DNA from: Saprospiraceae bacterium
GTDB lineage: Bacteria; Bacteroidota; Bacteroidia; Chitinophagales; Saprospiraceae
Length of the DNA: 48,555 bases
Direction: 5' to 3'
NCBI GenBank assembly: GCA_013001975.1
Contig: JABDKX010000013.1
Location: 1 to 48,555 of the forward strand
In this document: positions 16,244 to 30,482 of the stretch, in pieces
How the letters are laid out: each line of letters begins with the position of its first letter
Position numbering within the stretch: position 1 is the first letter of the stretch
Translations under genes and position numbers: made by a program
Notes under the pieces: model-generated
Told to the model about the DNA's origin: nothing
What the model saw: the letters and a program-made list of their open reading frames with translations, nothing else
The model's database searches: none

Positions 16244-16301
16244 TCTAACTTAGATACTTTGACATTGAACCTTGCGTTCTTGTTGTAATGGAACTTTAAA
16301 T

Positions 16302-17411
16302 ATGAAATACTTATTTAATTACATCATATTCTTATTGTTTATAAATGTGTCCAGTGCCCAATCAATAATTGACACGAGCATAAGTACAAGTCAATTTTCA
16401 ATATTATTCGATTCTGATAAACACACAATTAGAGATTCTTTTAAAGTTCAATTGGATAGCTTGATTACGAAATGGCATTCAGGAAAAGAAACTCATCTTG
16501 TTTTAAAAGCACATACTGATAGTATCGGTTCTGATGAATACAATATCAACTTATCAAAAAGAAGATTAAATGCAGTAACAGCTTACCTTGAAAAAGGCGG
16601 AGTCAGTGATACGTTAATTGTTTCCAACTTTTATGGTGAAAAATTACCTACCGTTGATAACAAAAACGCATCGTTGCGTCAATTAAACAGGCGTGTTGAG
16701 GTATTCGTTTCACAAAAAACCAAAGCTAAATTATTAGTTGGTAGGGTAGTGGATGCAAAATCCAACCAAGGACTGAAGTCTCATCTGGATATATCATTTG
16801 GAAATGAGGATCAAAGGTTATTGACAGAGTCAGATGGTAAATTTGAATTGTTGATTCCCTTGACTAACGGTATTGAAATAGTTGCCAATGCTGAGAACTA
16901 TTTTTTCAGACATTTAAAAATAAAACCACAGGTACTTGCTAATCTCGATTCAATTATAATAAAAATGTCGAAAATGGACATAGGTTCTAAGTATAGTTTG
17001 AAAGGACTAAATTTCGTTTCTAATAAATGCATAATACTTCCAAAGTCAATACCTATATTACATAGACTGATCTCAACAATGACTACTAATGAAGATTTGT
17101 GTATTGAAATTGGGGGACATATCAATTTACCAAACCGACCTAAAGTGACCAATCAGAGTGATTATTACGATTTATCATTGTCTCGAGCAACTGTTGTTTA
17201 CGATTCTTTGGTTAATGCAGGTATTGAATCAGTGCGAATGTATACCAAAGCATATGGTAATTGGGAAATGATTAATCCCAAAGCAAAATCTGAAATTAAA
17301 CAAGCTGAAAACCGCAGAGTTGAAATTGAAGTTGTTGATTGTGCTGATTCTGCAACCATACATAACGAACAGGTTAGATGGCCAGCGATCCACGGATATA
17401 AAGTACGTTAG
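16302..17411 (+). CDS. Exported protein with two OmpA-like domains
   Basis: The 369-residue product starts at ATG 16302 with a signal peptide (M-K-Y-L-F, hydrophobic core, cleavage near S-S-A/Q). A first OmpA-type peptidoglycan-binding domain (about 28-140) includes I-L-F-D-S-D-K, A-H-T-D-S-I-G and the final R-Q-L-N-R-R-V-E-V. A beta-rich segment resembling a carboxypeptidase regulatory-like domain follows (about 143-225). A second, diverged OmpA-like domain (about 235-355) ends A-E-N-R-R-V-E-I-E-V. Anchoring the outer membrane to the cell wall is inferred. No barrel is present, so it is probably periplasmic or a soluble anchor. Confidence 0.85.
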   Translation: MKYLFNYIIFLLFINVSSAQSIIDTSISTSQFSILFDSDKHTIRDSFKVQLDSLITKWHSGKETHLVLKAHTDSIGSDEYNINLSKRRLNAVTAYLEKGGVSDTLIVSNFYGEKLPTVDNKNASLRQLNRRVEVFVSQKTKAKLLVGRVVDAKSNQGLKSHLDISFGNEDQRLLTESDGKFELLIPLTNGIEIVANAENYFFRHLKIKPQVLANLDSIIIKMSKMDIGSKYSLKGLNFVSNKCIILPKSIPILHRLISTMTTNEDLCIEIGGHINLPNRPKVTNQSDYYDLSLSRATVVYDSLVNAGIESVRMYTKAYGNWEMINPKAKSEIKQAENRRVEIEVVDCADSATIHNEQVRWPAIHGYKVR

Positions 17412-17718: not shown

Positions 17719-19407
17719 ATGAAATTGAAGCTGATTATATTTTCTGTACTATTTCTATGTAATAAAGTAAACGCTCAGAACTTTGATAACTTTAAAGAAA
17801 AAGATCCCTTTAGTTACTCTGGAAATGTTACAATTGGAACTTCTTTTTATAATGCTGAAGGAAGAGAGAACCGAAGAAATCCTTTTGCTTATTATATAAG
17901 TGCATCTCCAACTATTTCAATCTATGAAATTGATATTCCAATTAGTTTTACTTATAGAGATCAGCAAGGAAGTGTATCTAATCCGTTCCAACGATTCACA
18001 ATTAATCCAAGCTATAAATGGATTAAACTTAGTGTAGGAAATACAAGTCTTGACCTCAGTCCTTATACGCTTTCTGGACAATATATAAAAGGTGCTGCTA
18101 TTGAATTAACACCAGAAAACTTTAGAATTAAAGCTGCATATGGTGAATTGGAAAATCCATTAGCTCAAATTGACACCCTACTCGAAGGGCCATTGTTACT
18201 CCCAACGTATAAAAGAAAAGCTGCTGCGGTATCTATTGGTTATGGCTCTATGAATAATTATATTGATCTCATTTTTTTTAAGGCGAAAGATGATGTTAAG
18301 GCATCAGATATCCCTGCAATAAATCAAAACCTAATTAAACCCGAAGAAAATATTGTTGTTGGTACTTCGTTTGCAGTTTCGCCTATTAATCAGTTATATA
18401 TAAAAGCAAATGTTGGTGCTAGTGCACATACAGCCAATCAAGAAAGTGCAAGTGAATTTAATTACACCGATAGCAATAATTCTTTAGGACGGCTAGAAAA
18501 TGCTTTTACAGTTAATCTTTCTTCCAAACTTCAATTTGCTGGCAATGCAAGTATTAATTATAAGTTTAAAAAAATCGGAATTGGATTTGATTACAAAAGA
18601 GTGGACCCGCTTTATAAAAGTTTAGGTACGTATTATTTTCAAGAAGATTATCAGAATTTTACGATGACATTAAACTTCTCAGCGCTTAACAATAAAGTTA
18701 GATTTAGAGGTTCAGCTGGTATACAAGAAAATAATCTAAGCAAATTAAGATCCAGTACAAGAAAGAGAAAAATATTCAATGGAAATCTGACCCTTATGCC
18801 TTCAAGGACTTTTACAACCTCATTAAGAATGGCAAACTTTACAAGTGATAAAACACCAGTACTTAATACGTTAAATGATAGTATTCAATTTACCCAGACA
18901 ACAGAAACATACAGTATTACACCTGTGTATTCCATCTTAGGGGATAATATTAATTCAACATTTATAGCCATGGTCAATTACCAAAAACTTGTTGATTTGG
19001 GATTGAGCTTTACTGAGGCAAGGCTAGTTGATAATTATATAGCTAATCTATCATATAGTATGTATCTGAAAGCAACTAAGCTTGCAATTACAACAAGTCT
19101 ACTTGGTAACAGGAATATGATTGCTGGTAATGAAAACTCTAGATTGGGTGCTACGGTAACCGCAAGTAAGAAATTTTTTGATAACAAATTATCTGTGTCA
19201 ACTAATGTCGGATTCACTAGAAATTTCATTAATAAAATTATAGATGGTAATACAATAACAGGTAATATTGGTTTAAGATATAATGTAAAAAGAACGATCA
19301 GCATTGGCTTTAATACTAATATTTTACATAGGAAATCTGATATAGAATCTTATCGTGAGCTTAGAGGTACTGCAAAAGTTTCTTATCAATTTAACTCAAA
19401 AAAATAA
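17719..19407 (+). CDS. Outer membrane beta-barrel protein, first gene of surface operon
   Basis: This 562-residue product has a signal peptide (M-K-L-K-L, cleavage near V-N-A/Q) and then a long run of alternating hydrophobic and polar residues broken by short turns, ending in a typical barrel closing strand (A-K-V-S-Y-Q-F) close to the C-terminus. There is no TonB plug signature and no sorting tail, so the protein probably sits in the outer membrane. The family is not recognised. It lies 9 bases before the 2166-residue gene, so both are likely cotranscribed. A channel or anchor role for the downstream exported proteins is inference only. Confidence 0.75.
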   Translation: MKLKLIIFSVLFLCNKVNAQNFDNFKEKDPFSYSGNVTIGTSFYNAEGRENRRNPFAYYISASPTISIYEIDIPISFTYRDQQGSVSNPFQRFTINPSYKWIKLSVGNTSLDLSPYTLSGQYIKGAAIELTPENFRIKAAYGELENPLAQIDTLLEGPLLLPTYKRKAAAVSIGYGSMNNYIDLIFFKAKDDVKASDIPAINQNLIKPEENIVVGTSFAVSPINQLYIKANVGASAHTANQESASEFNYTDSNNSLGRLENAFTVNLSSKLQFAGNASINYKFKKIGIGFDYKRVDPLYKSLGTYYFQEDYQNFTMTLNFSALNNKVRFRGSAGIQENNLSKLRSSTRKRKIFNGNLTLMPSRTFTTSLRMANFTSDKTPVLNTLNDSIQFTQTTETYSITPVYSILGDNINSTFIAMVNYQKLVDLGLSFTEARLVDNYIANLSYSMYLKATKLAITTSLLGNRNMIAGNENSRLGATVTASKKFFDNKLSVSTNVGFTRNFINKIIDGNTITGNIGLRYNVKRTISIGFNTNILHRKSDIESYRELRGTAKVSYQFNSKK

Positions 19408-19416
19408 TTCTGGATT

Positions 19417-22400
19417 ATGATATACATGCTAAAAAATATATCCATATTAATTTGTGTTGTTTTTTTCTCATTTTCATTGAATGCACAAAATTATGACTTA
19501 GAAATTAATGTTTTTGTACCTCCACCATATCCCACTGAATTAGATGTTTACGTCGATAAAATGGAGCAAGGTATAATTACTGTAACAAACTTAACTTCAG
19601 AACCAGTGGAGGCTTTCTTTGGTGTATCGCTTACTGAAAACTCTGGAAAATTTGCAATAACAACAAATGGAATTCTTACGCAAGGAGTAACGGTATCTCA
19701 AGGTGCGACAATGTTAACACCTTCTGATATTAGAGATATTTTTACAGGTTTTTCAGAATCTGATATTAATACGGCTGGTTTATCACCTGCTCAAAAAGAT
19801 GCATTCCTTTTAAATAAGCAATTACCTGAAGGATCTTATACTTTGTGTGTGTTTGCATTTGATAATCGACCTGTATTAATTTCTGACCCTGAAGGAAATG
19901 CATGTTTTGATTTCGATATAGTTTATCCTGAAAGACCCATTATTGATATTCCATTTAATGATGAGGTATTGGATACGCTAAACATTTTCAATATTCTTTG
20001 GAGCCATGAGCTTTCAGATCAAAATGCGTTGTCTAGAACCGAATATGTGATTACTATTATTGATTTGACAGAGCAAGAAATAAGTAACGTTCAAAATGCG
20101 TTTCTTGATCCTGGTATTTCGCCGGACTTTGAAGAAGATGTCGGTCCTCTTAGGTTTAAAACCATTCAAGATGATGTAGAGTTGCCTTTGATAACGGGAA
20201 ATAAGTATGCCGTCAGGGTAACCGCCAAAGATCCTATGGAAATTATTGCATATAAGTTTGGTGGTCATAGCGAAATAGTTGAATTTTTTTATGGCTCTGT
20301 TGAAACAAAAGCAGCAGATGAAAAACCAAAATTGGCAGCTCCCGAAATTATAATTCCTGCTGATGGTAAAGATTTGCCCGTTTCTGACATCATAAATATT
20401 CAATGGGATCACACTATAGAAGATACTACTGATTTTTCTTATACATTAAAAATAATTGATAAGACAGTTGAAAAACTTACGGCAACAATTATTAAACCTG
20501 ATGATCTCGAGAATGACAATTACAATTATATCTTAGATACCAAGATTACTTCCAAAGACACAAGTTTTACTGCGGACAGTACTCTTTGGATTAAAGACCA
20601 TTTTTATGCTGTCGCAATAAAAGCTGAAAGTTCTGATACAAATTTTGTGTTAGAAAATAGCGGATACAGCAAAGTTTCTGGTTTTAAATTCGGGAAAACC
20701 GTCGTTGTTGAAAAAGAAGACAATTGTAGTGATGAATTTATTAGTCAAATTCCTGATAATACAACTAGTGTTAAGCTTAAAAAAAATAAAGAGTATAAGT
20801 TTGGACAATTAAAATTGGATTCAGGAACTGGCTTTACAGGTAACGAAGTTTCAGGATATGAAGGAAAAGGATACATTACGGTCAAGTTAGGTGAAAAAAA
20901 AATAAAGGTTATTGTTTCTTATAAGGATCTAAAAGTAAACAAAGACAAAGAAGTTTTTGCTGGAACTGCTAAAGTAGAAAATGATGCAAACGTAAATCTG
21001 GATGAAAAAATTGCAAATTATATTTCTGGTAATTCCGATCTTCCTTTTGATGAAGTAGCAGGATTTACTACTTATACCAGATTACGTACAAAAATAGAAT
21101 TGGCTAATAATGGAAAACAAGTGGCCCTTCCTCTGGGTATAGATAGAAAGATTGGACAGGAAAACATGGTTATAGGTATTTCTGCTATGGATATAAGTCT
21201 GACACGAGCATCACTTACAGCACTTTTCAGTATTGAAAATCCAGAATGGGGTGATAATATTCCAACCCTTGCTGCTACTGGTGTTTGTTTTAATTCTGAT
21301 GGATTAAGCAATACCGCAAAACTCAGTCTCATAAAAGATTATACTATACCATTAAGCAATGAAACCCTCACTTTAAAGGCTGCTAAATCTGACAATAAAG
21401 AGGAAATTGAAGGGACATTCGCTAGCTTTGGTAAAGACGGATTTGAAAAAGGTCAAATTACCGGAGAAATAAAAATACCTAGAGAAATTTTGGTTCCTGA
21501 AGAAGAAAACGGCGAAGTAAAAGAAACCGGACGCGCAACGCTCTTCTTGTCGGGCACCTTTATGTCTAAGAAAAATTTTCTTCTCGAAGCCAGCTTAACT
21601 TCTTGCCAGATACCGGGGTTGGAAGGATTCAGTTTTCAGCTAAAAAAAGGATCCTATGACAACTCTGATGAGGTGAATCCTTCAGGAATAGATTTTCCAC
21701 AAGGTTATGAAGCTTCTGAGGCAGATGCAAAATGGAAAGGTGTTTGGTTTTCTAATGCAGAAATCAAAGCACCTCAAGGTTGGGGATTTGCAGATGATGG
21801 AAAGAGAACAAGCATTAATTTGAAAAACTTTATTAAAGATAAAGTTGGTGTGTCAATTAAGGGTGAAGCATCTCAATCAATAAAAGGTGAGTTGGAAGGA
21901 TTTGCAATTTCCCTAGATAAAATTAGTCTTGATATCATTCGAAATCAATTTAAATCCATAAAAATAGAAGGAAACTTAGGATTACCTATTCTTCCCAAAG
22001 ACCGACCTCTCGAATACGTTGGGATGGTGGACAAAGACCTCATGAAAGAAAATATTGACAAGAAAGAGAATGCTCTAAGCATGAGTTTTACTATAAAGCC
22101 CAATAAAGAGGGATATGATATCGACTGGTTAAAGGCACATGTAGATTTTGATAGAAACACTCAGTTTTTTATTAAAAATGACGCTAAGGAAAAAGGTCTT
22201 AAAGGTACAATGGGAGGTCTCATTTCTATTAAGACCTCAGATTCAGATGAGACAAGTCTCGAACTCCCTAAACTAAAATTTGAAGGTATGGAGTTGCGTA
22301 AGCTTACACCAAAAAATAAAGAGACAAATGAAAATGATAAAAAAGAAGATAAAAAATCGTTTGTTTTTATTGCACCAAAATTTAGTCTTGAAGGTCTTCC

Positions 22401-25400
22401 CGATAATTCAGAACAAAAGACAGAGGAATCCAGTAACAACCCAGATACAAAAAAGGATGAAAAAAAGAAGGTCAACGGCTTTTCTTTTGAGTTGAAAAAA
22501 CTTGAATTCGCTGATGATGCACAACTCATTGAAAATGGAAGTGAACTGGCATTAAACATTGCTGCGAAAGTCATGCTGGTAGGAGAATCTAATAAAAAAG
22601 ACAAGAGTGGAAAAAAGGCAAAAAATGAAAACGGATATGCGATTTCCGCTGAGGGTGAAATCACATTAAAATCTAAAGTGAGCTTAGACGAATCTATAGC
22701 AACAAATGCTCCTTTAGAAAAACTAAGATTCAGTGCCCCGTCTATATCAGTGAAGAAAATGGCTATCGACACCGAAGTAAAATCTTTAAAATTAGCGGGT
22801 TCAGTTGAATTTGTCAGTGGAGATGCTACTTATGGTAAAGGAGCTGCTGGCAAATTAAAGGTGGAAACTCCACTCACAAGTGTAAACCTTGACGCAAGAT
22901 TCGGTACCAAAGATGACTTCAACTACTGGTGCGCCTATGGAAGCGTAGGTCGCGTCGGAAATTCAGGAAATAAGCCAGCAGGTCCATTATATCCAACTCC
23001 AAAAACACCTAATCCAGGTATTCTTCAACTTTGGGGCTTTAGAGGGGGTGCTTATTATCACATGCGAGATGAAGGGCAAGATGCCAATGATAAAAATGTA
23101 ACCTTAAGCAGATATGTGCCAGACAAATCAAAAGATCTAGGTTTGAAAGCAGGAGTTACCATAGCACTTGACAAGAAAAAAATGGGTAGCACTAAAAAAG
23201 AAGTTTTTTGGGCGAACCCAGAGTTAGGAATCGAAATTGGAGATGGAACAAAGGTCACATTGGAAGGCAGCGGGTATATGCTCAAAGATGATATGACACC
23301 GAATGGAGAAACAATTGATGGTATAGAATTCCGGATGATTAATACCAAAGCGAGACCAACTGCATTTAATATCAAAGGAGACAAATGGGATTTGCAAGCC
23401 AACATGGATGTGTTTGTCAACATGGAAGGTGGAATTATGAAAGGGGGTTATGACGGTTTGAAAATGGTGGAAGCGAGTCTCAAAGTAAGCGAACAAGAAA
23501 ATTATGTCAAATTAGGAACGCCTAAAAAACCAGGTAAAGCGACGTTCAGTATTCCTAATACTGAAATTTCCATAACACCAAGTGCTTACCTTATGGCCGG
23601 CTATCAAACAACTTTACCAAAAGCAGAGTTGGACCCATTTATAGGTGGTATGTTCAAGAAAAGTAACAGTGGATTTTCTGGTGCTGCATCTGGCTCCCAG
23701 GTATCTACCAGAACGAACGGTCAAACTGGATTTGCCTTTGGCGCTAAACTGGATTACAGCTTGAATTTAAGAGCAGCCATTCTTTATGCTGATTTCAGAG
23801 CCATGGCTGGATTTGATCTCAGTTTGATTTCACAAGATATTGCATGTGTAGGTCTTGGGAAGAAAGGTCTTGATGGGTGGTATGCTGAAGGAAAAGTATA
23901 TGCTGGCTTTAAAGGAGATATGGGTCTCTATGTTGACATTTTCTTTTACGAAGGAAAAATCTCATTGTTGACACTACAGGCGGCATTGCTTCTTGAAGGC
24001 GGATTGCCTAATCCTGTATATGCCCACGGTAAAGCCAGCATGTCCTACAGGGTTCTAGGTGGACTTGTAAGTGGTACAACTCAATTTGATGTTAAGATAG
24101 GTGAAAAATGTATTCCAATTGAAGAGGACGATCTAGGCCTGGATGATGATTTCATTGCGGCAATGTACCCTAGGGATCAGCAGAAGGACGCTTCTGTATT
24201 TTCAAAACCTATGGTATCCTTTAATGGAAAAATAGGTACTAACAAGACTACAATCAATGATCTTAATCAGATTTATCAAGTTAAAATTCCTAAGTCAAAA
24301 GTAGCCACCAATCCTGATGGATCTGTAAAGGTTGTTGAAAACAAAAATGCGGGTCAGGTGAGAACATTCAGAGTAAAGATTAAATTCTTTAAATATACAG
24401 ATGAAAACAGCGAACTAATAAAAGGAAAAGGTGAAATATTAGATGATGTTGAATACAAATATACGATCACTAAGATGCTCAGTCCTGAAGCCACACATAA
24501 TTTCGAAATCGTTTTGGTCGCAGACGAGTATGTCGATGGAAATTGGATTCCATTCAAGAAAAATTCAGGAGATCTATGGGAGCTGAAAAGAAGTCACAGC
24601 TTTTTAACTGGTCAACGTCCAGACAGAATCACTTATGATAACGTTGACTTCCTTTATCCTATGTCAAGACAAAGTACATATCTGCAGGATGAAAATTCTG
24701 CTAAGGAAGGATTTGTTGAATTTGGTGTACCTATTGATTATCTCTTTGAATCCAGAACGGAAGGAGATGGACAATGGAAATCAAAAATAGAAGCGAGATT
24801 TATTGTGGACAGACCTTCAACTTTTTTGAAGGCATCAAGTAATGACTGGAACAGAAAAGCCAACAAGGAAGTATTCTATGCTGTAGAGCCTAAATTAGGA
24901 AAAGGTAAGTTTCTGGTTTTCGATATGCCTTCTGGAGAAAATGCATTACCTAATGCTTCTATTATTCGCATAAATATTGTGAGATCGTTTGAAAAAAATC
25001 CTGATTTCAAAGGAGATAAATTGAAAGCGGTTCAGGTAGAAGAGTATAATGCCACAATTAATATTGAAGGCAAAGACTATCAGAATTTTCCACCCGATCC
25101 TCCTAAGGATAAATTTCTTTACCAGATGGTTTTTAGGACAAGTAAATACAATAATCTGGAAGAAAAGTTAGCTGACCAATCGAAAGCTAAGGCCACTTTA
25201 ATTAAACCGAGGAATTATAGTTATCACGCCGTTTCATTCAACACGCCAACCGATGAGAAATTTTCAGATTATGACTTATATGGCAAAGCATTGTCAAGAG
25301 ACTTCAAGCACTTGTTATATATCAATCAGATTCGGAGAACAGGTCTTACAAGTTCATTGCAATATTTCTTTGAAACTGAAAATAATTTTTTCAAAAATTA

Positions 25401-25917
25401 TAAAAAAGTGTTTAAAGAAGATAAGGGATTTGAATTGGAAAAATTGAGGATAGCTTCAGCTATTGAATTTGCAGACAATTTCCTTAAATGGAAATGGTCA
25501 AGTGGCTCTGATCTTAAGTTTTTATACAAAATATGGAAAGAATATTATGAGGACCGCGTACATGATTGTCCAGTATATCCTACTAGATGGAATGGACTGG
25601 TTGCTTCTGATTTCTACAATGCGGCATATCATGCAGATCAATTGAAACCCATTTTGGAAACAGTAAATTATTCATTGAAAACCGGTGAAGCTAAGGATAG
25701 GTATAGAATGCTCGATTACAAAAAGAAAATTTTAGAAGATTATTATGAAAGACCAGGAAAACAATTTGGTCCAAAATATTATAATAAGGCTTATAAAGTA
25801 AAATTTCAATACAGAAGTCCTGCGGTAGAAGGAAAAAATTCCGGCAAACCAAATAGGAGATATGTTAATGGCAAAACAATAGTAATAGACTACGGAGCTC
25901 TTAATAATTATAACTAA
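19417..25917 (+). CDS. Giant exported protein (2166 residues) of unknown function
   Basis: The product begins with a signal peptide (start at 19417 or the in-frame ATG 19426; cleavage near L-N-A/Q). Residues about 25-180 form an N-terminal domain in which Pro-rich P-P-P-Y-P is followed by a beta-rich fold. Two immunoglobulin/FN3-like repeats follow (about 185-300 and 310-425), each with a Pro-rich start and a Trp in the N-I-x-W strand. A very long beta-rich central part (about 440-1600) contains Lys/Glu-rich low-complexity segments near 970-1060 and 1105-1120, and Gly/aromatic repeats that resemble amphipathic strands. The last 500 residues are mixed alpha/beta. I see no T9SS sorting tail. 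The N-terminal part may relate to the TANFOR-type regions of Bacteroidota surface proteins, but that is from memory and unverified. Confidence 0.8.
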   Translation: MIYMLKNISILICVVFFSFSLNAQNYDLEINVFVPPPYPTELDVYVDKMEQGIITVTNLTSEPVEAFFGVSLTENSGKFAITTNGILTQGVTVSQGATMLTPSDIRDIFTGFSESDINTAGLSPAQKDAFLLNKQLPEGSYTLCVFAFDNRPVLISDPEGNACFDFDIVYPERPIIDIPFNDEVLDTLNIFNILWSHELSDQNALSRTEYVITIIDLTEQEISNVQNAFLDPGISPDFEEDVGPLRFKTIQDDVELPLITGNKYAVRVTAKDPMEIIAYKFGGHSEIVEFFYGSVETKAADEKPKLAAPEIIIPADGKDLPVSDIINIQWDHTIEDTTDFSYTLKIIDKTVEKLTATIIKPDDLENDNYNYILDTKITSKDTSFTADSTLWIKDHFYAVAIKAESSDTNFVLENSGYSKVSGFKFGKTVVVEKEDNCSDEFISQIPDNTTSVKLKKNKEYKFGQLKLDSGTGFTGNEVSGYEGKGYITVKLGEKKIKVIVSYKDLKVNKDKEVFAGTAKVENDANVNLDEKIANYISGNSDLPFDEVAGFTTYTRLRTKIELANNGKQVALPLGIDRKIGQENMVIGISAMDISLTRASLTALFSIENPEWGDNIPTLAATGVCFNSDGLSNTAKLSLIKDYTIPLSNETLTLKAAKSDNKEEIEGTFASFGKDGFEKGQITGEIKIPREILVPEEENGEVKETGRATLFLSGTFMSKKNFLLEASLTSCQIPGLEGFSFQLKKGSYDNSDEVNPSGIDFPQGYEASEADAKWKGVWFSNAEIKAPQGWGFADDGKRTSINLKNFIKDKVGVSIKGEASQSIKGELEGFAISLDKISLDIIRNQFKSIKIEGNLGLPILPKDRPLEYVGMVDKDLMKENIDKKENALSMSFTIKPNKEGYDIDWLKAHVDFDRNTQFFIKNDAKEKGLKGTMGGLISIKTSDSDETSLELPKLKFEGMELRKLTPKNKETNENDKKEDKKSFVFIAPKFSLEGLPDNSEQKTEESSNNPDTKKDEKKKVNGFSFELKKLEFADDAQLIENGSELALNIAAKVMLVGESNKKDKSGKKAKNENGYAISAEGEITLKSKVSLDESIATNAPLEKLRFSAPSISVKKMAIDTEVKSLKLAGSVEFVSGDATYGKGAAGKLKVETPLTSVNLDARFGTKDDFNYWCAYGSVGRVGNSGNKPAGPLYPTPKTPNPGILQLWGFRGGAYYHMRDEGQDANDKNVTLSRYVPDKSKDLGLKAGVTIALDKKKMGSTKKEVFWANPELGIEIGDGTKVTLEGSGYMLKDDMTPNGETIDGIEFRMINTKARPTAFNIKGDKWDLQANMDVFVNMEGGIMKGGYDGLKMVEASLKVSEQENYVKLGTPKKPGKATFSIPNTEISITPSAYLMAGYQTTLPKAELDPFIGGMFKKSNSGFSGAASGSQVSTRTNGQTGFAFGAKLDYSLNLRAAILYADFRAMAGFDLSLISQDIACVGLGKKGLDGWYAEGKVYAGFKGDMGLYVDIFFYEGKISLLTLQAALLLEGGLPNPVYAHGKASMSYRVLGGLVSGTTQFDVKIGEKCIPIEEDDLGLDDDFIAAMYPRDQQKDASVFSKPMVSFNGKIGTNKTTINDLNQIYQVKIPKSKVATNPDGSVKVVENKNAGQVRTFRVKIKFFKYTDENSELIKGKGEILDDVEYKYTITKMLSPEATHNFEIVLVADEYVDGNWIPFKKNSGDLWELKRSHSFLTGQRPDRITYDNVDFLYPMSRQSTYLQDENSAKEGFVEFGVPIDYLFESRTEGDGQWKSKIEARFIVDRPSTFLKASSNDWNRKANKEVFYAVEPKLGKGKFLVFDMPSGENALPNASIIRINIVRSFEKNPDFKGDKLKAVQVEEYNATINIEGKDYQNFPPDPPKDKFLYQMVFRTSKYNNLEEKLADQSKAKATLIKPRNYSYHAVSFNTPTDEKFSDYDLYGKALSRDFKHLLYINQIRRTGLTSSLQYFFETENNFFKNYKKVFKEDKGFELEKLRIASAIEFADNFLKWKWSSGSDLKFLYKIWKEYYEDRVHDCPVYPTRWNGLVASDFYNAAYHADQLKPILETVNYSLKTGEAKDRYRMLDYKKKILEDYYERPGKQFGPKYYNKAYKVKFQYRSPAVEGKNSGKPNRRYVNGKTIVIDYGALNNYN

Positions 25918-25935
25918 GCTATTCAAATTAAGATT

Positions 25936-28020
25936 ATGAAAGAATTTATAATACTTACAGGATTGGTTCTTTTATCGACTCATGGGATCGGACAGGTAAG
26001 TGAATTCCTGGACAACCCCGATGCTGAAGAAGTTTTGGACTCTAGTCAAACCAGAGATGCAGACATCTATTTGTTCTCAAAATCTACTGATGATGGGTTA
26101 AGCTTAAGGTGGGCCCCTTCTTCACCGAATGTATGGTTGGAAGGAAATACATATGGCTATTCAGTAGACAAAATGCAACTCGATTCAAATAATGTAGAAA
26201 AATTTATACCACTTGGTCAAGGCCTATACAAAGCATGGCCATTGGATGAATGGAAATCCATCGTTTCTGAAGATTCACCTTATACGGCGGCTGCAGCTAT
26301 GACAATTTATGGAGCAGAAGAATCAACAGGAGGAGATAGCTTCACCAAAGGAGACCAAGACCTCAATAATAGATTCGGATTTGCACTGCTCTCAGCCGAT
26401 CTTGATAAAAATGCCGCAACTGCATCTGGGCTATCTGCAACTGATCAGAAAGTTGAAATCGGAGAATATGTAATATATAGGATCTATATCAAAGATGAAT
26501 TGGGAAATGCACGCTCCGATACCAGTTTTTACTTATGTCAAAGAGAAGAAGTTGTTCAGGAAACAGCACCAATAATTTCTGAAATAGAAGAATTGGAAAA
26601 TGTAGTGAATTTGAGTTGGGACAAATATTCAGGTTCCACAACATTTACAGGATTTTACATTGAACGTTCTGATGATAACGGAAGTACATATTTACGTATT
26701 ACCGAAAGACCCGTTTTGGATATATCTACAAACCTTATGGAAGGAGATATCATCAGTTATGCAGATTCACTTGAAACCAATTACCAATCATATTATTACA
26801 GGTTAGTTGCTGTGGATGCATTTGGGGATGAAAGTTTACCCAGTGAAGCTGTCATAGCTATGGGACGAGATAAGACAGGCCCCGAGGCACCAGAAAATTT
26901 TATTGTAGAAGAACAGAATAATGGATTTCAATTGTCATGGGAATTTGATAATGCCCTCAATGATATTACAGGATTCAATATTTATAAATCTGTTGAAACC
27001 GAAGACAACTATGATCTCATTTCTCAAAACCTCTCTCCAGAAAGCAGAGCCTTCATTGATAACGATCCCGATCCTATAAAAACAAATTACTACTATGTAA
27101 CTGCCATTGATACTGCTGGAAATGAATCCTCCAGTAAAATTAATTTTGGTATTACCACGGATAATATTCCTCCTCAAGCACCTGGTAATTTAAGATACAG
27201 TATAGACACTATGGGTCAATTGCTCATCCTTTGGGACGCTCCAAGGGATAATGATATAAGAGGGTATAGAGTATATGTAAGTAATGCACAAGATGATGAG
27301 TTCGCATCTGAATCTGGAGATTATCTCAAGCAAACATATTTTGCTACAAATATTGAATTAGAAACGCTGACTGAAAAGATATACTACTTTGTTCAAGCTA
27401 TAGATTGGAGTTATAATGTATCTGAAAATTCAATGACATTAGAGGTTGTTAAACCGGATATTTTACCGCCATCTCAGTCTATTTTTGTTGATTATGAAGT
27501 TACTGAAGAGGGTATATCTTTTAATTGGATACCTAGTATCAGTGAGGATGTAAAAGAAATACAGTTACTGAAAAGAGAACTGGGACAAGAATGGGTTTCA
27601 GTAAACAACTTTGATCAAAACACGCTTACTTTTCTGGATAAAAGTGTCGAAGAAGGTGTGTTTTATGAATATACATTAAATACAATAGATGATGCAGGTA
27701 ATTCCACTCTTTCTGAAAAAACACTAAATCTTGAAGCTCTAAAATCTTTCTTTTTAAAAGAGATTCCTACACTGGAAGCAAAATCTGAAGATGAAGGTAT
27801 CGTTTTGACAATTGGATACCCGGAAAAAGAAAATTTCACATTTACAATTTACAGAGGAGAAAATGAGGGCCTTCTAAGTACCTTAAAAATATTGGAATCT
27901 GGAGAAGAATTCGTTGATAAGGATATTAGAAAAAAAGTCAAATATCAATATGCTGTCAAAGCTAACGCCATGGATGGGCGTGATTCAAAACTGAGTAATA
28001 TAATTTCAATCAAAAAATAA
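25936..28020 (+). CDS. Exported fibronectin type III repeat protein
   Basis: A 694-residue product with a signal peptide (cleavage near G-I-G/Q) and an N-terminal domain (about 22-205) of unknown fold rich in Trp and Asp. At least four FN3 modules follow (about 215-310, 318-410, 412-505, 510-600), recognisable by repeated L-S-W / I-L-W / F-N-W strands, Y-Y-Y-R/V-x-A-x-D and D-T/A-G-N-E-S turns; a fifth, weaker one closes the protein. There is no C-terminal sorting domain. It starts 18 bases after the giant gene and 12 before the T9SS-tail gene. A binding or scaffold role at the surface is inferred from the FN3 repeats. Confidence 0.85.
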   Translation: MKEFIILTGLVLLSTHGIGQVSEFLDNPDAEEVLDSSQTRDADIYLFSKSTDDGLSLRWAPSSPNVWLEGNTYGYSVDKMQLDSNNVEKFIPLGQGLYKAWPLDEWKSIVSEDSPYTAAAAMTIYGAEESTGGDSFTKGDQDLNNRFGFALLSADLDKNAATASGLSATDQKVEIGEYVIYRIYIKDELGNARSDTSFYLCQREEVVQETAPIISEIEELENVVNLSWDKYSGSTTFTGFYIERSDDNGSTYLRITERPVLDISTNLMEGDIISYADSLETNYQSYYYRLVAVDAFGDESLPSEAVIAMGRDKTGPEAPENFIVEEQNNGFQLSWEFDNALNDITGFNIYKSVETEDNYDLISQNLSPESRAFIDNDPDPIKTNYYYVTAIDTAGNESSSKINFGITTDNIPPQAPGNLRYSIDTMGQLLILWDAPRDNDIRGYRVYVSNAQDDEFASESGDYLKQTYFATNIELETLTEKIYYFVQAIDWSYNVSENSMTLEVVKPDILPPSQSIFVDYEVTEEGISFNWIPSISEDVKEIQLLKRELGQEWVSVNNFDQNTLTFLDKSVEEGVFYEYTLNTIDDAGNSTLSEKTLNLEALKSFFLKEIPTLEAKSEDEGIVLTIGYPEKENFTFTIYRGENEGLLSTLKILESGEEFVDKDIRKKVKYQYAVKANAMDGRDSKLSNIISIKK

Positions 28021-28032
28021 AATCCTATAAAT

Positions 28033-28509
28033 ATGAAAGCACTATTTACACTCATTTTTCTATGTACTGGAATATTTTATTCCAATGCACAGGAAATTCT
28101 TGCAGTGACAGGAGGTGATGCCTTTGGCAATGGAGGATCATCATCCTATACTGTAGGTCAACAATTTTTTGGATTTAAAACTGACGGTACGAATACTGTG
28201 ATAGAAGGTATTCAACATCCTATTGAAATTTCTGTAATTACAGGAACAGAAAACGACTTGGTGTTAAACCTGAATTTATCGGTTTATCCGAATCCTACTG
28301 CTCAATTACTAAATCTTGAAATAATAGATTATAACAAAGAAAAATTAAAGTTCCAGTTATTTGATTTTCAAGGCAAATTAATAGATGACCAATTCATCAC
28401 AGGTTCAATTACCAAAATTTTCCTTGGGAATTTAATTCCGTCTACATATTTACTGAAAGTCGTTGATCAGAACCAATCTTTCAAATCATTCAAAATCGTT
28501 AAAAACTAA
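28033..28509 (+). CDS. Small secreted protein with T9SS type A sorting domain
   Basis: The 158-residue product has a signal peptide (cleavage near S-N-A/Q), a short domain (about 22-75) with the pattern T-G-G-D-A-F-G-N-G-G and Y-T-V-G-Q that ends G-I-Q-H-P-I-E-I, and a T9SS C-terminal domain (about 80-158) starting V-Y-P-N-P-T and ending in F-K-I-V-K-N. The Y-P-N-P start and Lys-rich end are the hallmarks of type A sorting tails, so the protein should cross the outer membrane through the T9SS. It is the only member of this operon with such a tail. The first domain occurs widely in Bacteroidota, to my recollection; its role is unknown. Confidence 0.88.
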   Translation: MKALFTLIFLCTGIFYSNAQEILAVTGGDAFGNGGSSSYTVGQQFFGFKTDGTNTVIEGIQHPIEISVITGTENDLVLNLNLSVYPNPTAQLLNLEIIDYNKEKLKFQLFDFQGKLIDDQFITGSITKIFLGNLIPSTYLLKVVDQNQSFKSFKIVKN

Positions 28510-28513
28510 TACA

Positions 28514-29857
28514 ATGAAAAAATTATTCACAATAATATTTACTCTTTTTATCTGCACTTTTGTTTGGGCTCAATCACCAAAAAAAATGAGTTATCAAGCT
28601 GTAGTTAGAAATGCCAGCAACGAATTGATAGGAAATAAATCCGTAGGAGTACAAATAAGTATTATCCAGGGCTCTGTAAACGGGACCGTGGTATATGCTG
28701 AAAGACAAACTCCAAGCACAAACAATAATGGTCTAATAAGCTTACAAATAGGATCGGGTAATCTGGTTTCTGGTGATTTTGATTCAATAGATTGGTCAAT
28801 GGGTCCATATTTTATAAAAACAGATACAGATGTTACCGGTGGAACAAATTATACTATTTCAGGTACCAGTCAATTATTAAGTGTTCCTTATGCACTTTAT
28901 GCAGAAACGTCAGGCAGTGGCGCAACAGGTCCTCAAGGACCTCCAGGTGCTGATGGTATGGATGGTGCTCCGGGTGCACAAGGACCTCCAGGAGTTGATG
29001 GTATGGATGGTGCTCCGGGTTTACAAGGACCTCCAGGAATTGACGGTATAGACGGTATCGATGGTGAAGATGGACTGAGTGCTTTTGAAATTTGGTTAGA
29101 TCAAGGTAATACAGGCACAATTGAAGATTTCTTAATGTCAACAGGTGGTTCTATAGGTCCTGAAGGGCCCGAAGGACCGCAAGGGCCTCCTGGAGCTGAC
29201 GGTCAGGATGGAGCACAAGGTGCTGAAGGACCAATGGGACCTCCAGGACCACAAGGCTTGCCGGGAATGGATGGTGTTGACGGAATGGACGGAGCACAAG
29301 GTGCTGAAGGACCAATGGGACCTCCAGGACCACAAGGCTTGCCGGGTATGGATGGTGCTCCTGGTATGGATGGTGCACCAGGTATGGATGGTGCTCCCGG
29401 TATGCAAGGGCTTCAAGGTGAGGACGGACCTATTGGTCCGCAGGGCCCACCAGGTTCTGCAAATATAAACGGAACTCCTGGGCGAATAATTAAATTTGAT
29501 ACGCCTACAAGGGGATCAAATTCTATTATGTCTGAAAGTGGAAACAAAATCCAAATTGATGGGTATATTAAAACAGGATCGGCATCTTTCTACCCTGCTT
29601 TTAAGATCAAAGACACAGAAATTACAACCGGGTCTAATGAAGGTGATTTCACATTTGCACAACATTTTTTAGATGCAAATAAAATATTGAGCTGTACAGT
29701 ATTGGTCAATGGGGTACCCCCTCATTTTACAGCACAGGATGGATTTGAATATACTTTCTTCTTTGATGATACTGATTTTTATTTATGGTTGTCTAACTCG
29801 AACTCCTTTAATATTCTGAATCAAACAGCAAAATTTGTTTTTTTAGTTCAGGAGTAA
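28514..29857 (+). CDS. Collagen-like repeat exported protein
   Basis: The start is ATG 28514, giving 447 residues with a signal peptide (cleavage near V-W-A/Q). Residues about 20-132 form a domain common in Bacteroidota exported proteins (M-S-Y-Q-A-V-V-R-N near the start, S-V-P-Y-A-L-Y-A at the end). Gly-X-Y collagen repeats run from residue 136 to 314 with one non-collagen interruption (188-214), and a beta-rich C-terminal domain (about 315-447) follows. The repeats are rich in G-P-P, G-M-D and G-A-P triplets; at DNA level they include near-identical copies. It lies 4 bases after the T9SS-tail gene and ends the operon. It has no sorting tail. A trimeric rod-like surface or matrix protein is the likely nature. 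Confidence 0.88.
   Translation: MKKLFTIIFTLFICTFVWAQSPKKMSYQAVVRNASNELIGNKSVGVQISIIQGSVNGTVVYAERQTPSTNNNGLISLQIGSGNLVSGDFDSIDWSMGPYFIKTDTDVTGGTNYTISGTSQLLSVPYALYAETSGSGATGPQGPPGADGMDGAPGAQGPPGVDGMDGAPGLQGPPGIDGIDGIDGEDGLSAFEIWLDQGNTGTIEDFLMSTGGSIGPEGPEGPQGPPGADGQDGAQGAEGPMGPPGPQGLPGMDGVDGMDGAQGAEGPMGPPGPQGLPGMDGAPGMDGAPGMDGAPGMQGLQGEDGPIGPQGPPGSANINGTPGRIIKFDTPTRGSNSIMSESGNKIQIDGYIKTGSASFYPAFKIKDTEITTGSNEGDFTFAQHFLDANKILSCTVLVNGVPPHFTAQDGFEYTFFFDDTDFYLWLSNSNSFNILNQTAKFVFLVQE
29210..29405 (+). repeat. DNA tandem repeats within the collagen region
   Basis: A segment of about 56 bases starting at 29210 recurs at 29291 without visible change (offset 81 bases, 27 residues). Right after it, an 18-base unit encoding G-A-P-G-M-D appears about three times (about 29350-29405) with third-base changes only. 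Recent in-frame duplication or slippage is the likely origin. Confidence 0.8.
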
Positions 29858-29877: not shown

Positions 29878-29919
29878 AAGGAAGGGATGATCTTCTTGTA
29901 GGATTATCCCTCCTTATTT
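29878..29919 (+). terminator. Terminator of the surface operon
   Basis: The arm at 29878-29892 (AAGGA, one bulged A, GGGATGATC) pairs with GATTATCCCTCCTT (29902-29915), 14 pairs with one G-T wobble and a 9-base loop. A TATTTAATTTAATTTTT tract follows. It begins 20 bases after the collagen gene stop. Confidence 0.65.
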
Positions 29920-29954: not shown

Positions 29955-30482
29955 ATGATAAGATTCAATCACACTTTTATTCTTATAGTATTGATGAGCG
30001 TTCTTTTTCTCTCATGTAATTTAGATAAAAAAACACCTTATTCGGACTCTAAAAGTGATGACAATATTGGTCAACAAGAATTTTTTGATTTTGAATTATT
30101 GTTAGGAAAGTGGAAACGGACTAATGACTCAGAAGGAAAAGTGACTTATGAATCATGGCATCAAAACGAAGAAGGAAAGTATGAAGGCTTTGGATGCACA
30201 CTCCAGCATGGAGATACCATCTGGCAGGAAAAAATTGAGATTGATGATAGTGAAGGCTATCTGTATTTTAAAGTGACAGATAAAACAGGACATTCTGTTC
30301 CGTTTAAAATTATGGAACAATCACAAAATTCATTTTCCTGTCATAACAAGGAAAATGATTTTCCGAAGACTATTACATATAAGGTCAACAAAAACAAAAT
30401 AATGGCAACCATTTCTGGGGGAGGAACGAAGGTAGATTTTGATTTTGTTAAAATGGATAAGCCAATTGAATTTTCGAAGTAA
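29955..30482 (+). CDS. DUF6265-like lipoprotein
   Basis: A 175-residue product with a lipobox L-F-L-S-C (Cys21), so an exported lipoprotein. The mature part resembles the DUF6265 family: L-L-G-K-W-K near its start, a W-x-x-N-E-E-G-K-Y-E-G strand, and H-N-K-E-N-D-F-P-K-T-I-T-Y close to the C-terminus, matching the usual N-x-E-H-D-F-P pattern. The function of that family is unknown; the fold is probably a lipocalin-like small barrel. It stands alone after the surface operon terminator and is convergent with the ABC-F gene. Confidence 0.75.
   Translation: MIRFNHTFILIVLMSVLFLSCNLDKKTPYSDSKSDDNIGQQEFFDFELLLGKWKRTNDSEGKVTYESWHQNEEGKYEGFGCTLQHGDTIWQEKIEIDDSEGYLYFKVTDKTGHSVPFKIMEQSQNSFSCHNKENDFPKTITYKVNKNKIMATISGGGTKVDFDFVKMDKPIEFSK

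What the first reader, a model, noticed from the sequence alone, without database searches (positions are those of the whole stretch)
17719..29857. Five-gene surface operon: barrel, giant protein, FN3 protein, T9SS-tail protein, collagen-like protein
Gaps of 9, 18, 12 and 4 bases and a terminator at the end make this one transcript of about 12 kb. Every product has a signal peptide, yet only the 158-residue protein has a T9SS tail. The set reads like an outer membrane anchor plus several fibrous or modular parts, a possible surface assembly, adhesion or matrix system in which the small tailed protein could be the exported base or cap. I do not recall a named system with this composition.
Basis: inference. 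Interest (0 to 1): 0.75.

Follow-up and report, generated by a model that had tools for sequence, protein, structure and literature searches.

The report
Conserved outer-membrane barrel, giant-protein operon
Five neighbouring genes in an uncultured Saprospiraceae bacterium are two modules, a widely conserved set of an outer-membrane barrel, a giant protein and a fibronectin-type protein, plus an add-on pair for a fibre, which together probably put a large adhesive structure on the cell surface.

Summary
The five genes, their gaps (9, 18, 12, 4 bases), the single T9SS tail and the closing hairpin are as described. The set is two modules. (1) Barrel > giant > FN3 protein is a conserved operon: 27 of 40 Saprospiraceae loci picked for the giant have the three consecutively; 27 of 30 loci picked for the barrel across Bacteroidota hold a giant-family gene. 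The giant starts with a divergent TANFOR-type module of ~300 residues, present in 57 of 62 giants that directly follow a barrel; bodies behind it differ. Three natural proteins fuse this module to the barrel. Some relatives' clusters also hold TANFOR proteins with nuclease ends. The one TANFOR paper found (PMC7073777) proposes T9SS export and never uses the word 'barrel'; here 0 of 92 complete giants carry a T9SS type A tail. (2) The T9SS-tailed small protein plus collagen/MAT-like fibre protein is a separate pair, near the triad in 7 of 40 loci where 0.2 is expected. Best reading: the barrel exports or anchors the giant at the surface; the pair adds an adhesive fibre. Export is inferred. No toxin domain or immunity gene was recognised in this window.

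The parts
17719..19407 (+). Barrel: 562-aa predicted outer-membrane beta-barrel, about 26 strands, no separate domain before strand 1; presumed exporter or anchor of the giant
   Evidence: no Pfam/NCBIfam family
19417..25917 (+). Giant: 2166-aa secreted beta-rich protein with N-terminal divergent TANFOR-type module (about residues 25-300), long conserved body (about 430-1990) and fast-diverging C-terminal end
19489..20316 (+). DNA of giant residues 25-300: TANFOR-type module, shared by nearly all giants that directly follow a barrel and fused to the barrel in three natural proteins
25936..28020 (+). FN3 protein, 694 aa, family-specific N-terminal region followed by FN3 repeats; third member of the conserved triad
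28033..28509 (+). Small 158-aa protein with a short core and a T9SS type A sorting tail; first gene of the fibre pair
28514..29857 (+). Collagen-like fibre protein, 447 aa: N-terminal domain resembling the MAT (mosaic adhesive trimer) N-domain, two Gly-X-Y shafts, C-terminal region; second gene of the fibre pair
29883..29911 (+). Probable intrinsic terminator closing the operon

Best explanation
The operon makes an outer-membrane surface assembly. Shown: barrel, giant and FN3 protein form a conserved three-gene unit across Bacteroidota; the feature most constant in giants beside barrels is the N-terminal TANFOR-type module, while the body behind it differs; the fibre pair is an add-on. Inferred: all parts enter the periplasm by Sec; the TANFOR-type module docks on the roughly 26-strand barrel, which exports the giant or holds it in the outer membrane with its body and fast-diverging end outside; the FN3 protein is an accessory stalk or stabiliser; the small protein goes out by T9SS and helps place the collagen-type trimeric fibre. 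In this organism the result is most likely an adhesion or contact structure; in relatives the same clusters also hold TANFOR proteins with nuclease ends.
For: Triad: 27 of 40 giant-selected family loci have barrel>giant>FN3 consecutively, 30 of 40 hold all three; median gaps 8 (n=53) and 5 (n=50) bases over the family and phylum loci. Reverse selection by the barrel across the phylum: 27 of 30 loci hold a giant-family ORF (25 of 28 without the window and G028). 57 of 62 barrel>giant pairs have the TANFOR-type module (L141 and L176 are one locus). Nine giants of about 2,850-4,140 aa share mainly the N-terminal ~300 residues with the window giant. Three single-ORF fusions of module and barrel: 895, 903 and 947 aa. 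No T9SS type A tail on 82 barrels, 92 giants, 65 FN3 and 7 fibre proteins with complete, non-identical C-termini. Nuclease ends: AHH in L181, Col-Pyo_DNase in L166. Fibre gene near triads 7 of 40, 0.22 expected.
Against: No experiment shows export, surface location or contact. Five barrel>giant pairs lack the module (L049, L141/L176, L180, L181); in L180 and L181 it sits on the second giant, after FN3. Of the four strongest TANFOR places in the phylum sample none has a barrel within 1.5 kb; in 20-kb views three share the cluster with a barrel (L166 twice, L176) and one (L167) has FN3 but no barrel. Barrels without a giant: L078, L090, L096, L111, L138 and others; giants without a barrel: L037, L044, L060 and others. 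All 97 barrel-positive genomes also have SprA, so T9SS dependence is not excluded. The barrel model resembles many barrels (usher hits at TM 0.5 or less). The giant's body could itself be membrane-embedded (query TM about 0.1).
Confidence: 0.5

Rival explanations
1. TANFOR polymorphic toxin exported by T9SS (hypothesis of Jana et al. 2020): the giant is a toxin-delivery protein, T9SS is the exporter, and the barrel is only an associated outer-membrane protein.
For: Module homology to TANFOR; T9SS-tailed ORFs in 19 of 40 family loci; all 97 barrel-positive genomes have SprA; nuclease-ended TANFOR proteins in sister clusters; the window giant's last 150 residues have no match among 46 other giants, so a replaced end is not excluded.
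Against: No T9SS type A tail on any of 92 complete giants; neither type A nor B matched in 22 giants at E<=0.01. In the window no toxin domain is found and FN3 follows at 18 bases, leaving no room for an immunity gene there. Identity to the closest relative falls gradually toward the end and a few end residues are kept in 22 giants. SprA is in 118 of 122 genera, so its co-occurrence says little.
Confidence: 0.15
2. The triad is an envelope complex facing the periplasm (for example handling lipid or polysaccharide), not a surface structure; the giant's long antiparallel sheets line a conduit ending at the barrel.
For: Giant body model is almost all beta with long strands; the lowest-E Foldseek hits are LptD entries and ApoB100 also appears.
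Against: Query TM-scores near 0.1; mean pLDDT 72.7, pTM 0.41. Fast divergence of the C-terminal end and recurrent neighbours with T9SS tails, SprB, PKD/Ig, TSP3 repeats or fibres fit a surface role better.
Confidence: 0.15
3. The fibre pair has no functional link with the triad and only shares its transcript in this genome.
For: The pair is common without the triad (of 20 fetched pair loci only L157 holds the triad); its closest copies are in genomes without a giant match.
Against: 7 of 40 triad loci hold the fibre gene against 0.22 expected (P 3.5e-9; 5e-6 at threefold density; genomes are not independent), on either side of the triad.
Confidence: 0.2

Closest known systems
TANFOR-domain polymorphic toxins of Bacteroidetes (Jana, Salomon, Bosis 2020, PMC7073777)
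   Same: Large secreted proteins with the TANFOR-type N-terminus; neighbourhoods rich in FN3, PKD, SprB and T9SS-tail genes.
   Different: The window protein is below detection by TIGR02542; no toxin domain or immunity gene recognised; a barrel gene beside it, a word that does not occur in that paper's main text (supplements not seen).
Two-partner secretion (type Vb, TpsB/TpsA; recalled)
   Same: Barrel gene beside a giant with a near-constant N-terminal module and a variable passenger.
   Different: About 26 strands and no domain before strand 1 (TpsB recalled as 16 strands with POTRA); no TPS-type match.
SprB/SprF of the gliding/T9SS system (recalled)
   Same: Giant surface protein encoded beside an outer-membrane barrel in Bacteroidota.
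   Different: SprB has a T9SS CTD and SprF belongs to the PorP/SprF family (recalled); neither was found here.
Mosaic adhesive trimer (MAT) fibres of Bdellovibrio (PMC10769870)
   Same: N-terminal domain resembling the MAT N-domain model (NF053851) before a shaft and a C-terminal region.
   Different: 40.7 bits against a cut-off of 60; collagen shaft; paired with a T9SS-tailed small protein.
Chaperone-usher pores (FimD, PapC)
   Same: Top Foldseek hits for the barrel model.
   Different: No sequence family match; TM-scores 0.3-0.5; no chaperone or pilin family among the seven window proteins scanned.

Membership tests
TANFOR domain protein (TIGR02542) | N-terminal domain over curated cut-off (67 bits) | tested here: not met
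   No match in the window protein at E<=1. Relatives match at the same place under cut-off (8 of 22 giants, best 5e-7).
TANFOR polymorphic toxin class | C-terminal toxin domain with adjacent immunity gene | tested here: not met
   No Pfam/NCBIfam toxin over cut-off in the window giant (Mrr_cat_2 at E 0.097 not counted); next gene is FN3 at 18 bases. An unknown toxin fold cannot be excluded.
T9SS type A substrate | C-terminal Por_Secre_tail over cut-off | tested here: met
   Small protein only; window barrel, giant, FN3 and fibre proteins not.
MAT superfamily | Conserved MAT N-terminal domain | tested here: inconclusive
   NF053851 2.1e-10, 40.7 bits, under cut-off 60.
MAT superfamily | Trimeric beta-prism shaft and binding tip | not testable with these tools
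   Window shaft is collagen; no multimer prediction.
Two-partner secretion (type Vb) | TpsB with POTRA domains and TpsA with TPS domain | tested here: not met
   No such Pfam/NCBIfam match at E<=1; strands start near residue 31 of the barrel.
SprF/PorP barrel with T9SS-CTD giant | PorP/SprF family match and CTD on the giant | tested here: not met
Chaperone-usher | Usher family match | tested here: not met
   No Pfam match; fold similarity only; no PDB sequence relative at E<=0.1.

The most novel reading that the evidence does not exclude
Barrel plus TANFOR-type module is an undescribed two-partner outer-membrane secretion/display system of Bacteroidota: the module is the export tag, the barrel the pore or anchor that may serve several clients of a cluster, and passengers range from surface scaffolds and adhesins (as in this window) to nuclease-ended toxins.
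Probability: 0.33. Interest if true: 0.85.

Novelty: new variant of a known kind. Interest (0 to 1): 0.62.

Why it matters
How TANFOR proteins leave the cell is open; the published guess is T9SS. A conserved, sometimes fused, barrel partner gives a direct alternative that deletion strains can test, and it groups many unannotated giant proteins of Bacteroidota into one system. The work also outlines a recurrent pair of a T9SS-tailed small protein and a MAT/collagen-type fibre protein.

Tried and rejected
Rejected: LptD identity for the long (801-947 aa) distant barrel relatives: no LptD family in Pfam or NCBIfam for the five scanned. Not found: a toxin domain in the window giant. Led nowhere: PDB sequence search with barrel and fibre N-domain (no hit at E<=0.1); giant body hit only VDAC2 at 9e-4 with no stretch passing on its own, taken as composition. 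Phylum search with TIGR02542 alone: 3 of 247 genomes at E<=1e-4, none over cut-off. Same-genus genome G032 has no giant match; in the stretch fetched after its FtsZ none of the window's genes from 16.3 to 40.5 kb were found, so there is no clean empty site. Neighbour gene 29955-30482 had no match in five genomes. Immunity search beside toxin-ended or TANFOR genes: 7 proteins, only a sub-cut-off Imm11. Paper searches for the composition: and for TANFOR; nothing relevant beyond PMC7073777 (one search listed two other papers with one mention each, not opened). Not used: viral collection, remaining fold search.

Full report
What is there. The five + strand genes at 17719-29857 are real, with gaps of 9, 18, 12 and 4 bases and a strong hairpin with T-rich tail at 29883-29911. 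The window lies in a Saprospiraceae-like genome: of 11 named loci found with the barrel, ten are Saprospiraceae MAGs and one a Lewinellaceae MAG, the closest 66% identical (L061). Upstream are an OmpA-domain gene (about 307 bases away) and FtsZ, both outside the operon.

Triad. I searched 100 family genomes with the giant: 39 had a match, the window's own included. From these places I fetched 40 regions, not all of them, called ORFs and built profiles. In the 40 loci, all picked for a giant match, a barrel is found in 33, an FN3-family protein in 36, all three in 30, and barrel>giant>FN3 consecutively in 27; some misses are contig or region ends. Order variants exist: giant>FN3>barrel in L034, L041, L046. 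A test from the other side started with the barrel: its profile hit 97 of 247 genomes of a phylum sample, 66 of 122 genera, though many weak hits are longer relatives. Of the 30 loci delivered for the best hits, 27 hold a giant-family ORF within the 1.5-kb flanks (25 of 28 without the window and G028; misses L078, L090, L096; in L099 it lies upstream, and in L097 an overlapping ORF displaced the barrel ORF). In 40 larger phylum loci, picked by barrel hits of any strength, 38 show a barrel ORF, 33 a giant-family ORF and 17 an FN3-family ORF; several end inside a giant of about 4,000 aa, and of six such giants followed further downstream five have FN3 as the next gene (L168-L172; not L173). Giants are few per genome of some thousands of genes, so adjacency at this rate is not chance (inference).

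The N-terminal module. In 12 family genomes TIGR02542 (TANFOR) gave 21 places at E<=1, none over cut-off; 16 of the 21, and 10 of the 11 with E below 0.002, lie in giants found (compared by eye). 8 of 22 aligned giants match, best 5e-7; the window protein itself does not. Nine giants of about 2,850-4,140 aa in other families share mainly the first ~300 residues with the window giant. Of 62 barrel>giant pairs, 57 giants have the module; the exceptions are L049, L141/L176 (one locus), L180 and L181. In L180, L181 and L176 a module-bearing giant lies elsewhere in the cluster. In three proteins (L127 895 aa, L142 903 aa, L130 947 aa) module and barrel are one polypeptide (for L127 NCBIfam independently gives a weak TANFOR match). 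Fusion of otherwise neighbouring partners is classical evidence for contact (established reasoning, not a measurement). Against a strict pairing: the four strongest TANFOR places of the phylum search have no barrel within 1.5 kb; in larger views L166 (two places) and L176 share the cluster with a barrel, while L167 has FN3 but no barrel, and the barrel of that genome (L107) stands alone.

Barrel. AlphaFold2 on 34 sequences gave pLDDT 83.4, about 26 strands and no separate domain before strand 1. Foldseek's top solved matches are usher pores (TM 0.3-0.5) among many other barrels; no PDB sequence relative. I take only 'wide barrel without a recognised plug' from this.

Giant. Model of residues 430-1625: nearly all beta, pLDDT 72.7, pTM 0.41; hits to LptD, ApoB100 and porins at query TM about 0.1 are not evidence of a family. 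Among 47 family giants with complete ends, 17 of the last-150-residue segments match any other giant, compared with 38-41 for segments 300-900 residues from the end and 44 for the TANFOR segment; the window's last 150 have none. With the closest relative, identity is 48-90% over residues 751-1600 and 18-52% over the last 360. The fall is gradual and several relatives end in a similar strand pattern (by eye), so I read it as a fast-evolving exposed end; at such low identity a replaced last segment is not excluded. No toxin domain and no immunity gene were recognised.

T9SS. With a tail profile built from the small-protein family, none of 83 barrels, 100 giants, 69 FN3 and 8 fibre ORFs ends in a type A tail; leaving out ORFs cut at region ends and identical copies the counts are 82, 92, 65 and 7. 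19 of 40 family loci contain a tailed ORF. NCBIfam shows no T9SS tail in 22 giants or 32 FN3 proteins at E<=0.01. SprA is in 190 of 247 genomes and in all 97 barrel-positive ones (lists compared; hypergeometric 2e-15), but only 4 of 122 genera lack it, so this is largely lineage and does not decide who exports the giant. Of seven neighbours scanned, single proteins carry SprB, PKD/Ig or TSP3 repeats, two with T9SS tails.

Toxin relatives. Clusters in other genomes hold TANFOR-type proteins with an AHH nuclease end (L181) or a colicin/pyocin-type DNase end (L166); L179 has a weak, sub-cut-off TNT match; 7 of the 10 ends scanned had no toxin family. A 66-aa ORF follows the L166 gene; the gene after L181's has a sub-cut-off Imm11 match. 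The window genome has a single giant match and no TIGR02542 hit.

Fibre pair. In 61 family genomes the small protein matched in 60 (mostly through the common T9SS tail) and the fibre N-domain in 39, 97 hits. All 20 pair loci that I fetched, chosen because the hits were close, show small>fibre with gaps of -25 to 135 bases; one (L157) continues directly into barrel, giant and FN3. Among the 40 triad loci the same query finds the fibre domain in 7 (L027, L028, L029, L033, L035, L048, L053) where 0.22 is expected (related genomes are not independent). The pair lies upstream of the barrel in five of these, after FN3 in the order small>fibre in L028 as in the window, and after FN3 in reversed order in L053.

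Literature. Jana et al. 2020: I saw the outline, the first of six parts of the text (abstract, introduction, first results section), section 9 and passages, not the supplements; they define TANFOR toxins and suggest T9SS export. The MAT paper was seen as passages only. Searches for TANFOR and for the composition found nothing else relevant; the library lacks most subscription journals, so absence in print is not established.

Judgement. Conserved triad: near certain. Barrel as exporter or anchor of a surface giant with an add-on fibre: about 0.5. Toxin role in this window: less likely.

Noticed in passing
L131 3602-9062; L126 1515-5030: Distant barrel relatives (801, 909 aa) sit beside a small FecR-like protein, and in L131 also a CHASE2/adenylate-cyclase-like protein (all read by eye, 54 translations), an envelope-sensor-like cluster.
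   Followed up: partly
L166 11925-18707: TANFOR-type protein ending in a colicin/pyocin DNase domain, followed by a 66-aa ORF that by eye resembles colicin immunity proteins, then a short 336-aa barrel-family ORF.
   Followed up: partly
L109, L110, L112, L141: Barrels of 816-819 aa carry an unassigned C-terminal extension of about 250 residues after the barrel match.
   Followed up: no
L030 5121-10421: One ORF carries both a giant body part and the FN3 protein, a further fusion of triad members or a lost stop.
   Followed up: no
window 16272-17411: Protein with two OmpA-type stretches just upstream of the operon and downstream of FtsZ; only one of the 40 family loci showed a match to it (L030).
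   Followed up: partly
window 16300-40500: Same-genus genome G032 goes from FtsZ, past one unmatched gene, to polysaccharide genes matching window 40.6 kb onward; none of the genes between were found in the stretch fetched.
   Followed up: partly
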